64,000 bases of DNA from Desulfobulbaceae bacterium UBA2273 (lineage in GTDB: Bacteria > Desulfobacterota > Desulfobulbia > Desulfobulbales > Desulfurivibrionaceae): positions 62,001 through 126,000 of the forward strand of contig DDWZ01000015.1 of NCBI GenBank assembly GCA_002347095.1, read 5' to 3'. Shown here piece after piece: positions 12,185-21,220 of this stretch. Made by a program: the position numbers and the translations under genes. Under the pieces are notes generated by a model. That model ran no database searches, was not told the origin of the DNA, and saw only the letters and a program-made list of their open reading frames with translations. Each line of letters opens with the position of its first letter. Within the stretch, counting starts at the first letter, position 1.

Positions 12185-12305
12185 AAATTGGCTGTCGCGT
12201 ATTGCGCCAAGCCATCGATAAAGACAGGATGGAACAGTGGGTTGCCGAGTCTCTGCGGTAGGCCAATGCGTGCTCAACCCGGATATCAGCCACACGAAAA
12301 AAACC

Positions 12306-12347
12306 CTGCGCCCTTGCCCAGGGGAGAAAGTCTGGACAAGGGGGCAG
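12306..12347. other. Stem-loop downstream of DoxX-like gene 1
   Basis: A 16-bp imperfect stem (12306-12321 with 12332-12347) has loop GGGAGAAAGT. A closely related stem-loop with the same loop lies at the same distance (45-48 bp) after the second DoxX-like gene. There is no long T-run after it on the gene's strand, so it may be an mRNA-stabilising or processing structure rather than a simple terminator. Confidence 0.6.
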
Positions 12348-12394
12348 GCGCCCCGGCTGGGAAGAGAGGGAGGACTTACCATTGCCGAGGACGA

Positions 12395-12826
12395 TCACTG
12401 GGCGCGGACCTTTCCGCCAATCATAAAAGCCGCGCTCAACAAAAAGAGGTTCTTCACTATATACTGCCCTTCTAGGGACAACCCGAAAGGCGGATGGGTA
12501 AAGCAGATTTCCGGCAGCAGAATCAATGGCAGCATCGTTCCCGGCAATTGGAGAAGCAGGAATAAAAGAGCGATGCGGATCAACGGCCGATAAAGCAGGC
12601 ACAGGCCGATAGTTACCTCCCACCAGCCAAGACCCGGCAAGAAAATCTGCGGAGAAACCCAGTAGACCGTCCGCTTGATCAGCTCCGCCTCCGGGCTCAT
12701 GCCCAAAGGCTTCAACACCCCGAACCAGACGAAGATGAGGGAGATGGAATATCGCATCAGGGGCTGGCAGTACCTGTCCATCCCCTCGGAAATCCAGATA
12801 TCGGCACGGTCAAGCCAGGCGTACAT
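12395..12826 (-). CDS. DoxX-like membrane protein 1
   Basis: About 143 aa from the Met at 12826. The frame extends further upstream but inside the PilZ-type gene, so the shorter start (17-bp overlap) is preferred. Four hydrophobic helices and the pattern FVWFGVLKPLG ... LGWWEV ... LEGQYIVKN fit the DoxX/thiosulfate:quinone oxidoreductase small-subunit-like group. It forms a probable two-gene operon after the PilZ-type gene. A shorter paralogue lies at 20858-21220. Function unknown; a link to sulfur or quinone redox is only suggested by the family name. Confidence 0.68.
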   Translation of the reverse strand: MYAWLDRADIWISEGMDRYCQPLMRYSISLIFVWFGVLKPLGMSPEAELIKRTVYWVSPQIFLPGLGWWEVTIGLCLLYRPLIRIALLFLLLQLPGTMLPLILLPEICFTHPPFGLSLEGQYIVKNLFLLSAAFMIGGKVRAQ

Positions 12827-13421
12827 CCGTGTTGGCCCCCATTGCCCGCACCTTTCTGTCAATGGAAGACTGTCCAGCGGGGGCATACACGGATTTATAC
12901 TCCGTGTATCTGGTGTCGTAGGACAATTGCGGGATACGCGCATTATTCAGAATAAAACTTTCCAGTTGCCGCACCTGAAGCTCGGTAAGATCGCCAAAGC
13001 GGACCCGTCTCTCCCTGACGAAATAATTGCTTTCTAAAAATCGGGAACTTATCTCGTCGGCCATGATCTCAAAGGGGAGTCCTTGGATGTGCTGGCCGTT
13101 GTGCGTGAAGAGTATCCCCTCCTCCGGCAGCTCTTTCAACGGGGGGGTATCGGCAATGTATGAAAAGGATACGCCGCCCATGCTGATGTCGAGCACCCGA
13201 CCCACCCCCAGATGGAACACATACATCTCCTCACGTGGGGTGAACCAGGGGAATTTCCCGTGATGCTCACCCGGCGCATTGCCGGCGTGGATAGGCGTAC
13301 CGTCCACGGTATAGAGCGAGTTTCCTGGTCGGTTTGCCAACACTTCTCCGTTTCTGACCAAAGAAGCATTGCGGGGCGGGGCAATCCTACAGATGGCATC
13401 TTCAGACTTTTCCATAACCAT
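12810..13421 (-). CDS. PilZ-like domain protein
   Basis: 203 aa. The central stretch GRVLDISMGGVSFSY has the PilZ DxSxxG-type core, and a tail with RVRFGDLTELQVRQLESFI fits the end of such domains. PilZ domains often bind cyclic di-GMP. The usual N-terminal RxxxR is not obvious, so ligand binding is uncertain. It is transcribed divergently from the LysR regulator, across a 228-bp gap that must hold both promoters. Confidence 0.62.
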   Translation of the reverse strand: MVMEKSEDAICRIAPPRNASLVRNGEVLANRPGNSLYTVDGTPIHAGNAPGEHHGKFPWFTPREEMYVFHLGVGRVLDISMGGVSFSYIADTPPLKELPEEGILFTHNGQHIQGLPFEIMADEISSRFLESNYFVRERRVRFGDLTELQVRQLESFILNNARIPQLSYDTRYTEYKSVYAPAGQSSIDRKVRAMGANTDVRLA

Positions 13422-18460: not shown

Positions 18461-18676
18461 TCACTCGGTTAACTCTTCCACGCCGGCTCCACCAAACACG
18501 TCGGCCGCTCGTTCGCTAAGTTGCCGTTTCCACTCCGTAATCTGGTTTGGATGCACTTCAAACCTTTGCCCAAGTTCGGCCAGCGTTTTGTCTCCATCCA
18601 TCGCTGCCAACGCAACCTTGGCGTTGAACACCGCCAAGAGTTTCCGTCTCGTTCTTTTTGCCATATTCTGCTCCAT
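18461..18676 (-). pseudogene. IS3-family OrfA remnant
   Basis: Encodes MAKRTRRKLLAVFNAKVALA ... HPNQITEWKRQLSERAADVFGG, the typical helix-turn-helix OrfA of one IS3 subgroup, then diverges (AGVEELTE) and stops. The C-terminal leucine-zipper part and all of OrfB are missing. It abuts the IS21-like end, so this is a patchwork of decayed insertion sequences just downstream of the Cas12m-like gene. Confidence 0.8.
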
Positions 18677-18906
18677 ATTTATGCCCCGTGGGGCCTTCAA
18701 AAGGTTGCAGATTTTCCACTTAGCGGCTTGTTCAAATTTCCGGGGCCACTTCTGAGTGACTCTCCACAAAACCACAAAAAAACACTAACCATTCAGTCTC
18801 CGCCATAAAGCCGCGAAGCTGGCTTGTACAATCGTTTTTCCCGGTTCTTTTCGTATGCCCTCAGCGCGGAATGGGGCGCCGACTAGAACCTAACTGTCAC
18901 GGGCGC

Positions 18907-20676
18907 TCACTCATCGGCAAGGCCTGTAGTCTTTTCACCCATGCAACTTTGCGAAGCGATGGCTATGTGAAGGTTTCGCCGGCCGGGATTCTCATCTTGG
19001 TCGTACTCCTTGTCACAGGTCGAATAAGTATGAATAAGATTTTTCTGGACCAACTGCTCGGCGACGGATCCGAACGTATGATGCCCCATGGGAGTATTGC
19101 CTGTAATCAGAACTAGATCGGATCCAGTCTTGCCTGCTTGCAATTTCAACCAAAGCCTCAATTCCGAGAGGGCTGTCCTGGTTTTGATTCGTCGGAAATC
19201 ATCCGGCAATTTGCTGGCCGATCCGTCCTCTTCCCTAGTCTTTCGTAGGTTGCAATCCTCCAGGAAAATGGTCCCGTACTGAGTGGCAACCATCTTGGCG
19301 GCACATCGGTATATCTCCCTTCGTCTACGCTGTATCTTGTCACGCAGGTTGTCCATTTCCTCACGTTTCCGCTTGTCGTTTCTTCTCCATTTCTCGAAAA
19401 GTTCCAGGCATCCTGGTTCCCAGGTCCCGTGCTTCTCCCGCCATCTCAGGCAATAGGATGTCAGTTTGTGCACGTCGAGTTTCGAGGTTTTTTTGAGCCG
19501 ATCAAGCATCTTCGCCATAGGTTCAGGAGCATCGGTCGCGTCGATCCGACTCAACGCCACACAGATCTCATTGATGCCGCAGTCGAGCCGTTTCTTGATG
19601 GCATCGATGTGATCAAAGGCTGACATAATTTCAAGGGACAGAAGAATGGAGGAAATCTTATTCGTCACGTTGTCGACAATCGTGGCCACCTGTACCCCGC
19701 TATTCACTTCTTGGCAGCACAGTTTAACAACGCAAGCATATGGGTTTGGATGCCGTTGGCCGTTGGCGGTTGCAGCCTGACTACAGGTAAAGGTAGCCGA
19801 CCACCGGAAATGGGTGCCGACACGCCTCTTGACCACGACAATTTCCTTGATAAGCACATCCTCCGGAATCGACCGGTGCATGAGCATGGGAAAAGAAAGC
19901 GTGCGCCGCCGTTTGTTCCCACCCGCGTCCTTAGTGGTATAAACAGTAATGGTCAGCACCGTCCGCTGGAGTCGCTTGCGTGTCCCACGTGAATAATGGG
20001 TGAAGGCTTCCTCGCATAGCGGGGCTAGGGAAGCAACGCTTTTCTTGCCGGCAAAGAGGTCCGCGACGGTGGTCCCTCCTTGGATCTGGCAGGTGAAACG
20101 GCCAGTACCATCAAAACCATGGAACCGGAGGCCCGTGTTTCCCCGGAACGCCTTACCCCGAGCCACTTCATACGACGCGCAGACAGCGTTGTAATTCCCC
20201 CACCAAAGCCCTGATTCGTTCCGGGCCTTCTTGACAGAACTCTTGCGGGCCTCATTAATCCAAGCCAAGGCGCTCCGGTTTTTCACGCGGGACTCCTTGC
20301 GAAGGTCTTTGAGCTCGCTCTTAATGATATTAATTTTGTCACTGTATTGCTGGACCTGAGGGTCATGAAGGATAATGTCGTTCGTTTGGCGTCTTTCCCC
20401 CGCCAAGGTTTTTTTCAAGTTTTCAATGGCCTCACATCTGATGGTAACAAGATTTGCCAATTTCACTTCCTTGGCTGAAATATACTCACAACTGTTCGTA
20501 ATAGTACGACACCTCTCCCGATACTCACGCTCGATTTCAACCAAGCGGTTCCAAAGTGAATTCTGAAGATACAGGTGTTTCATGCAGTCCGCGTCCCAGT
20601 CGAGCGGATCGAGCAAGCCATATTGGCGAATCACAACTTTTTTGAAAGGCTTATCTTCGGGCCACAACTGTTGCAT
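18907..20676 (-). CDS. cas12m: Cas12m-like (type V-U1/V-M) RNA-guided DNA-binding protein
   Basis: 589 aa, the usual size of Cas12m (about 600 aa). As I recall family sequences, diagnostic stretches are GLWWGNYNAV (156-165), LRFHGFDGTGRF (183-194), MHRSIPEDVLI (266-276) and a C-terminal YDQDENPGRRNL (558-569) matching the family's YDQD RuvC-III region. RuvC-II is IFLEDCNL (Glu473). The RuvC-I aspartate seems absent (VVKLCCQ near 316-322), and the zinc ribbon is poor in Cys (HH at 532-533, Cys554). Known Cas12m proteins bind DNA with crRNA and silence without cutting. No CRISPR array, cas1 or cas2 is near. A TnpB-like transposon protein is the main alternative. Start has AAGG seven to eight bases upstream. 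Confidence 0.72.
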   Translation of the reverse strand: MQQLWPEDKPFKKVVIRQYGLLDPLDWDADCMKHLYLQNSLWNRLVEIEREYRERCRTITNSCEYISAKEVKLANLVTIRCEAIENLKKTLAGERRQTNDIILHDPQVQQYSDKINIIKSELKDLRKESRVKNRSALAWINEARKSSVKKARNESGLWWGNYNAVCASYEVARGKAFRGNTGLRFHGFDGTGRFTCQIQGGTTVADLFAGKKSVASLAPLCEEAFTHYSRGTRKRLQRTVLTITVYTTKDAGGNKRRRTLSFPMLMHRSIPEDVLIKEIVVVKRRVGTHFRWSATFTCSQAATANGQRHPNPYACVVKLCCQEVNSGVQVATIVDNVTNKISSILLSLEIMSAFDHIDAIKKRLDCGINEICVALSRIDATDAPEPMAKMLDRLKKTSKLDVHKLTSYCLRWREKHGTWEPGCLELFEKWRRNDKRKREEMDNLRDKIQRRRREIYRCAAKMVATQYGTIFLEDCNLRKTREEDGSASKLPDDFRRIKTRTALSELRLWLKLQAGKTGSDLVLITGNTPMGHHTFGSVAEQLVQKNLIHTYSTCDKEYDQDENPGRRNLHIAIASQSCMGEKTTGLADE

Positions 20677-20771
20677 TTTCTATACCTTATACAAGCGATG
20701 TTATATGTTTTTTCAAGCGGTCTTTGATGAAAGAATATTTTATATGCAAAAAACTTTTAACAATTCAAATT

Positions 20772-20813
20772 CTGTGGCCTTGCTCAGGGGAGAAAGTCCG
20801 AGCAAGGCCACAG
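20772..20813. other. Stem-loop downstream of DoxX-like gene 2
   Basis: A perfect 14-bp stem (20772-20785 with 20800-20813) has loop AGGGGAGAAAGTCC. It matches the structure after DoxX-like gene 1 in loop sequence and distance from the stop codon. It lies between the DoxX-like fragment and the start of the Cas12m-like gene on the same strand. Confidence 0.65.
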
Positions 20814-20857
20814 CCGCCATGGTCAATATATGATATATGAACCAGTGCAGATCGAAG

Positions 20858-21220
20858 TCAGATGGTTCTAGCTCTTGATACAAGAGTACATGCCGCACTT
20901 ATTAAGAAATAATTTTTGATAATGTATTGTCCTTCAAGCGAAAGTCCAAATGGTAGATGACTAAAGCAAATTTCTGGAAACAAAAAAAGTGGCAGCATCG
21001 TTCCTGGCATCTGAAAAAAAAGCAACAGAAGAGCGACCCGGATTAATGGCCCATACAGGAAGCACATCCCCACAACAACCTCCCACCAGCCGAGAAGTGG
21101 CAAATACCTTTCTAGAGACAACCAATGCATGGTTTTGCCAGCAAGATCAATTACTGGACTCAACCCAACCAACTTGATTACGCCAAACCAAGTGAATACT
21201 CCACCCCAAAAACAGACCAA
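20858..21220 (-). CDS. DoxX-like membrane protein 2, N-terminally short
   Basis: 120 aa, clearly paralogous to the protein at 12395-12826 (shared WFGV.K, LGWWEV, PGTMLPL, PFGLSLEGQYI.KN). The first about 20 residues of the paralogue are missing. The only start is a TTG at 21220, since an upstream in-frame stop precedes it without ATG or GTG. It starts 10 bp after the kinase gene ends. Either it is translationally coupled to that gene or it is a fragment left by recombination. Confidence 0.55.
   Translation of the reverse strand: MVCFWGGVFTWFGVIKLVGLSPVIDLAGKTMHWLSLERYLPLLGWWEVVVGMCFLYGPLIRVALLLLFFQMPGTMLPLFLFPEICFSHLPFGLSLEGQYIIKNYFLISAACTLVSRARTI

What the first reader, a model, noticed from the sequence alone, without database searches (positions are those of the whole stretch)
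18907..20676. Solitary Cas12m-like protein on a mobile island, without a CRISPR array
The 589-aa protein carries several stretches I associate with Cas12m (GLWWGNYNAV, LRFHGFDGTGRF, YDQD). Its RuvC-I aspartate and zinc ribbon look degenerate. Known Cas12m systems have an adjacent array and silence without cutting DNA. Here there is no array, cas1 or cas2; the downstream side is a patchwork of decayed IS ends. It could be array-less and use host or other crRNAs, have been repurposed, or mark a branch between TnpB and Cas12m.
Basis: partly seen in the sequence, partly recalled or inferred. Interest (0 to 1): 0.9.

Follow-up and report, generated by a model that had tools for sequence, protein, structure and literature searches.

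The report
Single-guide Cas12m, likely RNA-guided repressor
This gene makes a CRISPR protein of the DNA-binding, non-cutting Cas12m family that sits beside one lone CRISPR repeat and guide instead of an array, and in some relatives the lone guide matches genes for outer-membrane proteins, which suggests a CRISPR protein turned into a fixed gene switch.

Summary
The gene is real: an intact 589-aa ORF on the MINUS strand (18907-20676). It is a Cas12m (type V-M), matching the five Cas12m sequences in the PDB nearly end to end.

It is not array-less. One V-M repeat lies about 75 nt downstream on the same strand (18796-18832). A covariance model built without it finds it at E 2.7e-7, with no second copy on the contig. 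A lone guide follows, and IS3-like DNA begins about 40 nt later.

A single repeat is common among relatives (9 of 25 distinct loci). In two groups the lone guide matches outer-membrane protein genes on the sense strand beside a TTN PAM. In Methylobacteriaceae it spells the porin motif FYI(P): 6 of 7 non-cargo porins in three genomes pair over 11 nt, while most linked cargo porins carry synonymous seed mismatches. In two Manganitrophus plasmids it spells QNPEL of the adjacent TolC gene.

I read this as Cas12m exapted into a fixed-guide repressor, analogous to TldR but of CRISPR origin. The window's own target is unresolved, and a truncated array remains a serious rival.

The parts
18907..20676 (-). 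cas12m gene, 589 aa, intact ORF
   Evidence: ORF list; PADLOC Cas12f/Cas12u1 models E 2e-74 and 3.4e-74; PDB Cas12m 23vw E 4.8e-54; profile search
19723..19725 (-). codon of K318 at the RuvC-I aspartate position
   Evidence: alignment columns
18994..19083 (-). degenerate zinc ribbon (H532, F535, Y551, C554) through RuvC-III D561
   Evidence: alignment columns
18796..18832 (-). single type V-M CRISPR repeat, 37 nt, ending GGAGAC
   Evidence: motif; covariance model built without it: 36.6 bits, E 2.7e-7, next hit 11.1 bits; pseudoknot pairs kept
18776..18795 (-). lone guide, first 20 nt (TGAATGGTTAGTGTTTTTTT); the length used in the cell is unknown
   Evidence: position directly 3' of the repeat
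18461..18775 (-). IS3-like transposase fragment just beyond the guide; DNA similarity to plasmid IS copies starts near 18755
   Evidence: HTH_Tnp_1, E 0.001 but below Pfam's cut-off; blastn to plasmids, some annotated IS3 family

Best explanation
The locus is a single-guide Cas12m unit. The protein cannot cleave DNA by the usual RuvC mechanism (inferred from K318 and from published Cas12m biochemistry). It is predicted to process a short transcript of the one downstream repeat into one crRNA and to use this fixed guide to bind a TTN-flanked DNA site, blocking transcription there. The best-supported role is a fixed-target gene repressor carried by a mobile or formerly mobile segment, as in relatives whose lone guide matches genes for outer-membrane proteins (porins, TolC) while a version of that gene is linked to cas12m. 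Shown here: protein family, repeat, its conserved fold, the single-repeat state in relatives, and the guide-porin and guide-TolC matches. Inferred: transcription, processing, binding, repression, and that the window copy works the same way. Its target is not identified.
For: Near full-length Cas12m match. Repeat found at E 2.7e-7 by a model that excluded it. Pseudoknot helix 15-18/32-35: 98.6% of cells paired, 4 of 4 pairs changed on both sides; the window keeps both helices. Single repeat in 9 of 25 distinct loci. Guides of L007, L008, L009 and L029 start with codons F-Y-I of the porin motif FYIPGTDTCL, and a porin with that motif is linked to cas12m in L008, L009, L029 and on the plasmid L054. 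In three genomes 6 of 7 non-cargo full-length porins pair at all 11 guide positions, counting U-G wobble, with PAM TTC; shuffled guides reach this in 0-3 of 1000 (five of those porins tested). Cargo porins: two mismatches in the first 11 positions for L009, one for L054/L064, three for L029. The guide of L023 pairs at 14 of 14 positions (2-15) in the adjacent TolC gene beside TTC; 0 of 2000 shuffles in that gene, 0 of 300 in the locus. Published Cas12m proteins bind without cutting (PMC11013384, PMC10442227, passages seen).
Against: The window's guide shows no target: no match within the window above shuffles, and own-genome searches give only chance-level sites. L004, L005, L011 and L042 guides also show no local target. 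IS3-like DNA starts about 40 nt after the repeat and could have removed further repeats. Zinc-ligand loss may mean decay. In L008 the cargo porin pairs with the guide as well as the other porins do, differing only in PAM (TTT, not TTC). The L029 guide departs from the porin motif at position 10 and that strain's other porins were not available; the linked porin of L029 is a 338-aa ORF covering only part of the Porin_2 model, and the host porin L067 has one in-frame stop. The GAC4 plasmid copy (L025), with a broken cas12m, has the same guide but no TolC site above shuffles. The 11-nt porin test length was chosen after seeing the match; a 14-nt scan of the porin loci themselves did not stand out (P 0.28-0.93). 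No close relative allowed a selection test.
Confidence: 0.5

Rival explanations
1. A normal plasmid-type V-M defence locus whose array was cut back to its first repeat-spacer by the IS3-like insertion. The remaining spacer would be an anti-plasmid or anti-phage memory.
For: IS similarity starts about 40 nt beyond the repeat. V-M is enriched on plasmids and appears to serve inter-plasmid competition (PMC11656645, passages). Relatives L002, L026, L027, L041 and L061 have real arrays.
Against: No second repeat on the contig or in the two fetched stretches of contig C4. Single-repeat relatives exist with no transposase ORF listed beside the repeat, such as L011 (ORFs of 110 aa or more), where the repeat starts within 10 nt of the stop codon. 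The guide has no convincing plasmid, phage or viral-contig match (the one exact 19-nt viral hit has no TTN PAM).
Confidence: 0.3
2. A decaying leftover: the protein has lost zinc ligands and the unit no longer works.
For: K318, F535 and Y551 at otherwise conserved positions; no other genome among 27 of its family or 395 of its phylum sample (E up to 1e-20) has the gene.
Against: No stop or frameshift in 589 codons. The repeat keeps both helices. The H-R pair linked to crRNA processing is kept (H267, R268 invariant in the 21 sequences; that it is MmCas12m2 His269/Arg270 of the passage is inferred).
Confidence: 0.15
3. An array-less Cas12m that borrows crRNAs from the host's I-E-like array.
For: The genome has an array of about 104 repeats.
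Against: The R1 model reports no match in L016/L017, which hold that array, even at E 10, and a family-type repeat sits beside the gene.
Confidence: 0.02
4. A TnpB or a TnpB-to-Cas12m intermediate.
For: Weak NCBIfam IS607 TnpB match, E 6.9e-5, 22 bits against a cut-off of 350.
Against: Near end-to-end match to Cas12m structures, only C-terminal match to TnpB structures; V-M repeat; nested among Cas12m relatives in the tree (no TnpB outgroup included).
Confidence: 0.01

Closest known systems
Cas12m / type V-M CRISPR (MmCas12m2, GoCas12m, MsCas12m)
   Same: Near full-length protein homology, repeat with the same paired helices as array-bearing relatives, atypical RuvC triad, often on plasmids
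   Different: One repeat and one guide instead of an array; K-E-D triad, not in the list I saw (HEK, HQK, HDD, DED, NED, DND); zinc ligands H-F-Y-C
TldR, TnpB-like nuclease-dead repressors (flagellin-remodelling prophages)
   Same: Nuclease-impaired RuvC protein with one fixed guide; in the porin relatives also a cargo isoform linked to the regulator and homologues elsewhere in the genome as likely targets; short seeds suffice for TldR (6 nt, PMC13418256 passage)
   Different: Derived from CRISPR Cas12m with a crRNA-type repeat, not from TnpB; matches lie inside coding regions of outer-membrane protein genes, whereas TldR sites lie at promoters (recalled)
Single repeat units / Racr RNA anti-CRISPRs in phages
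   Same: A solitary repeat (PMC10651486, search listing; PMC11656645, passages)
   Different: Here the repeat is of the adjacent effector's own type and is followed by a guide, not a decoy for a host system

Membership tests
Cas12m (type V-M) | Full-length homology to characterised Cas12m | tested here: met
   23vw, 23vu, 8pm4 (deposited as 'Transposase'), 8hio, 8hhl matched over nearly the whole profile
Cas12m (type V-M) | V-M repeat near the gene | tested here: met
   One repeat, E 2.7e-7; the array beside the M. silvanus Cas12m, not in the model, is found by it at E 0.0015
Cas12m (type V-M) | CRISPR array with several spacers | tested here: not met
   Next model hit 11.1 bits, E 3.6, in 176 kb. 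So I file the protein as Cas12m, not the locus as a standard V-M CRISPR system
Cas12m (type V-M) | DNA binding without cleavage | not testable with these tools
   Inferred from triad and literature only
Cas12m (type V-M) | Predicted structure | not tested
TldR | TnpB origin | tested here: not met
   Cas12m homology and V-M repeat. Works-like comparison only
TldR | Single fixed guide matching a host gene, cargo isoform nearby | tested here: inconclusive
   Seen in Methylobacteriaceae relatives; not found for the window
IS605/IS607 TnpB | TnpB model score over cut-off | tested here: not met
   22 bits against 350
IS605/IS607 TnpB | Transposon ends around the gene | not tested
   No search for IS605/IS607 ends was made

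The most novel reading that the evidence does not exclude
A CRISPR effector family, Cas12m, has repeatedly given up its array and become a single-guide repressor carried by mobile DNA. It silences the host's outer-membrane protein genes through short seeds on conserved protein motifs while the element's own copy escapes by synonymous codon changes. The window protein, with K-E-D triad and lost zinc ligands, is a divergent member with an unknown target.
Probability: 0.45. Interest if true: 0.9.

Novelty: new variant of a known kind. Interest (0 to 1): 0.72.

Why it matters
TnpB-derived regulators (TldR) are known to swap a host flagellin for a phage one. If Cas12m with one guide swaps host porins or efflux channels for mobile-element ones, the same strategy arose separately from a CRISPR immune effector, and on surface proteins that affect permeability and phage entry. 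It gives a testable route from adaptive immunity to fixed gene regulation, with array-bearing and single-guide relatives in one family. In the held library no paper has both Cas12m and porin (0 papers), and the listings showed none on single-guide Cas12m, judged by titles and starts of abstracts; several lists were capped, and most subscription papers are not held.

Tried and rejected
Autorepression (guide against its own promoter): the window guide matches 15 of 20 bases at -91, but another site in the window does as well and the adjacent 3 bases are ATT, not TTN; not supported, also not in the other loci scanned there. U-G-tolerant 13-nt search of the own genome: 4 sites against 9 for the reversed control pattern; one lies in a secretin-like gene and one in a phosphatase-like gene; chance level. 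The 3-mismatch site at C4:81243 lies deep in a coding region, antisense. L004 guide: a 3-mismatch site with PAM TTC just upstream of a haemagglutinin-like gene (gene call is my reading of the sequence); about 0.3 such sites are expected by chance in that genome (my estimate), so only a lead. L005 guide: nothing but itself. Manganitrophus plasmids: the GAC4 copy has a broken gene but the same guide; differences are too few to test selection. Pfam found nothing above cut-off for the protein. Promoter/terminator scan and RNA fold of the unit are uninformative (the pseudoknot is not modelled there). Viral-contig scan with the truncated clade found no relative. Porin hits left out of the host count: the four partial Porin_2 matches L070, L072, L073, L075 of 14, none with a usable site, and the three cargo copies.

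Full report
1. The protein. The ORF 18907-20676 lies on the minus strand and is uninterrupted for 589 aa. PADLOC's Cas12f and Cas12u1 models match residues 14-563 at E 2e-74 and 3.4e-74; Cas12u1 is, from memory, an older name of this group. phmmer against the PDB gives Cas12m 23vw (E 4.8e-54), UnCas12m4a 23vu, 8pm4 (deposited as 'Transposase'; from memory GoCas12m) and Cas12m2. A profile of 21 relatives matches those five sequences nearly end to end (E 4e-133 to 1e-51), while the TnpB and Cas12f entries listed match only a C-terminal part. It is a Cas12m. The best listed relative besides itself is P0002, 43% identical over 568 aligned positions; that search scored only the 7995 candidates sharing most words.

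2. Active site. Aligned to relatives, the RuvC triad is K318-E473-D561 and the zinc ligands are H532-F535-Y551-C554. In the 137 sequences (a few are duplicates) the commonest triads are DED (37) and NDD (25), and 119 have cysteine at all four zinc positions; the sister pair P0002/P0020 is DED/HCCC, joined to the window with support 0.87. Loss of the catalytic triad is ordinary for Cas12m: variants with D-E-D, H-D-D and N-D-D all bind without cutting (PMC11013384, passages), and MmCas12m2 silences by binding (PMC10442227, passages). K-E-D is not in the clade list of that passage. Loss of two zinc ligands is unusual and unexplained.

3. The missed repeat. Loci of relatives were read for repeats. 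L002 (Nitrospirae, 39% identical) has a real array of eight repeats just after the gene. L011 and L023 have one copy, and so does the window: ATTGTACAAGCCAGCTTCGCGGCTTTATGGCGGAGAC at 18832-18796. A covariance model from 17 repeats of other loci finds it at 36.6 bits, E 2.7e-7, in 176 kb (the window, the rest of its contig and two stretches of contig C4, one of which holds the genome's large array); the next hit is 11.1 bits, E 3.6. The array beside the M. silvanus Cas12m, not in the model, is found at E 0.0015. The repeats share a helix (columns 9-12/21-24, 87.5% of cells paired) and a pseudoknot helix (15-18/32-35, 98.6%, 4 of 4 pairs with changes on both sides); 0 of 500 shuffles reach the covariation score. 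The window has its own letters in the second helix (C-G, U-A, U-G, C-G) and keeps it paired.

4. How common one repeat is. Grouping copies of one contig or near-identical plasmids, 25 distinct loci were scanned with the model or by motif. One repeat: window, L004, L005, L011, L023/L024/L010, L007/L054, L008, L009, L029/L053 (9). It is downstream on the same strand in most; in L007 it lies about 1.5 kb upstream, and in L008 and L029 downstream on the other strand. Several: L002 (9, one of them upstream of the gene), L026 (4), L027 (5), L041 (12), L042 (3, one upstream), L061 (5). No model hit at E up to 1: L003, L006, L013, L040, L043, L045, L047, L049, L059, L060 (10). Of these, L013/L048 and L047 have direct-repeat arrays of another sequence, L040 and L049 have short direct repeats that I did not resolve, and L043 and L045 end at a contig edge. 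Many of the repeats were used to build the model, so their hits are by construction; window, L010, L053, L054 and L061 were not given to it, but L053 and L054 carry the same repeat as members L029 and L007. On the tree the single-repeat loci do not form one group.

5. What lone guides match. The guides of L007, L008, L009 and L029 begin TTCTATATTCCC, TTTTATATTCCA, TTCTACATCCTA and TTCTACATCACC. Over their first nine bases they differ only at codon third positions and read F-Y-I; the fourth codon reads P, P, L and T. Porin_2 genes beside cas12m in L008, L009 and L029, divergently oriented, and about 5 kb from it on the plasmid L054, hold FYIPGTDTCL at exactly this register, 141 nt into the gene, preceded by TTC (TTT in L008). 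The L029 porin ORF is only 338 aa. A Porin_2 search of the three genomes of L007, L008 and L009 gave 14 matches, 10 of them near full length. Three of the 10 are the cargo porins (99.9-100% identical to the linked copies; the one in the L007 genome lies on another contig and equals that of L054). Of the other 7, 6 pair with their own genome's guide at positions 1-11, counting U-G wobble, with PAM TTC, and the seventh has one mismatch; one of the six, L067, has an in-frame stop. Whether these porins are chromosomal was not determined. In the L009 genome two porins match 10 of 10 letters exactly, while the linked cargo porin, 83% identical to one of them, has TTTTAT for TTCTAC: two synonymous changes that put mismatches into the seed. 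The cargo copy of L054/L064 carries one mismatch in the first 11 (position 3). That of L029 carries three (positions 3, 6 and 10), the last because the guide itself departs from the motif. The L008 cargo has none, but its adjacent codon is TTT where the other porins have TTC. Shuffled guides reach 11 of 11 in 0, 2, 3, 0 and 1 of 1000 for the five porins tested. The 11-nt length was chosen after the match was seen, the guides may be related by descent, and a 14-nt scan of these loci alone was not significant.

6. A second group. The guide of the Manganitrophus plasmids, TCAGAATCCTGAACTAACG, contains codons Q-N-P-E-L-T. In L023 the adjacent TolC-family gene (annotated, OEP domain) has TTC-G-CAGAACCCCGAACT in frame as QNPEL, 728 nt into the gene; positions 2-15 all pair (two wobbles), and 0 of 2000 shuffles do so in that gene, 0 of 300 in the locus. 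L024 has the same site among its best matches; L025, where cas12m is broken, has the guide but no such site above shuffles. Whether other TolC genes of the host are the real target could not be tested.

7. The window's guide. TGAATGGTTAGTGTTTTTTT has no better PAM-adjacent match in the window than shuffled guides. In its 3.2-Mb genome there is no other site with up to 3 mismatches over 20 nt, one over PAM plus 17 nt inside an unrelated gene, and only chance-level wobble sites. It has no convincing plasmid, phage or viral-contig match. IS similarity starts near 18755, about 40 nt past the repeat, so a 20-nt guide is intact but later repeats could have been lost.

8. Reading. The protein and repeat make a complete minimal unit: effector, processing-type repeat, one guide. 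In relatives the lone guide points at surface-protein genes with a cargo copy at hand, the layout reported for TldR and flagellin (PMC13418256, passages, where 6-nt seeds sufficed). I therefore prefer a fixed-guide repressor for the window too, at about even odds, with a truncated defence array as main rival. The class-level claim rests on sequence matches only; no expression or binding data exist here. The gene looks like a rare or recent arrival: among 27 genomes of its family and 395 of a phylum sample only its own genome has it.

Noticed in passing
L002:7845-7881 and L042:4309-4345: An extra V-M repeat lies upstream of cas12m besides the downstream repeats; it may make a guide for autoregulation.
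   Followed up: partly
   Followed up: partly
window 12301-12352 and 20767-20818: Two 52-nt copies, 77% alike, of an inverted-repeat element, each beside one of two similar small membrane-protein genes (12395-12943 and 20858-21220, minus strand) (similarity of the proteins read by eye).
   Followed up: no
G000 contig C4, about 48.8-56.3 kb (L016, L014, L015): An I-E-like CRISPR array of about 104 repeats with cas1 beside it.
   Followed up: no
L033 around 1501-1520: The lone guide of L004 has a 3-mismatch site with PAM TTC just upstream of a haemagglutinin-like gene; could be its target or chance.
   Followed up: partly
L028/L054 (pMPPM05): The cas12m copy on this plasmid is broken, while its repeat and guide start as in the intact relative L007.
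   Followed up: no
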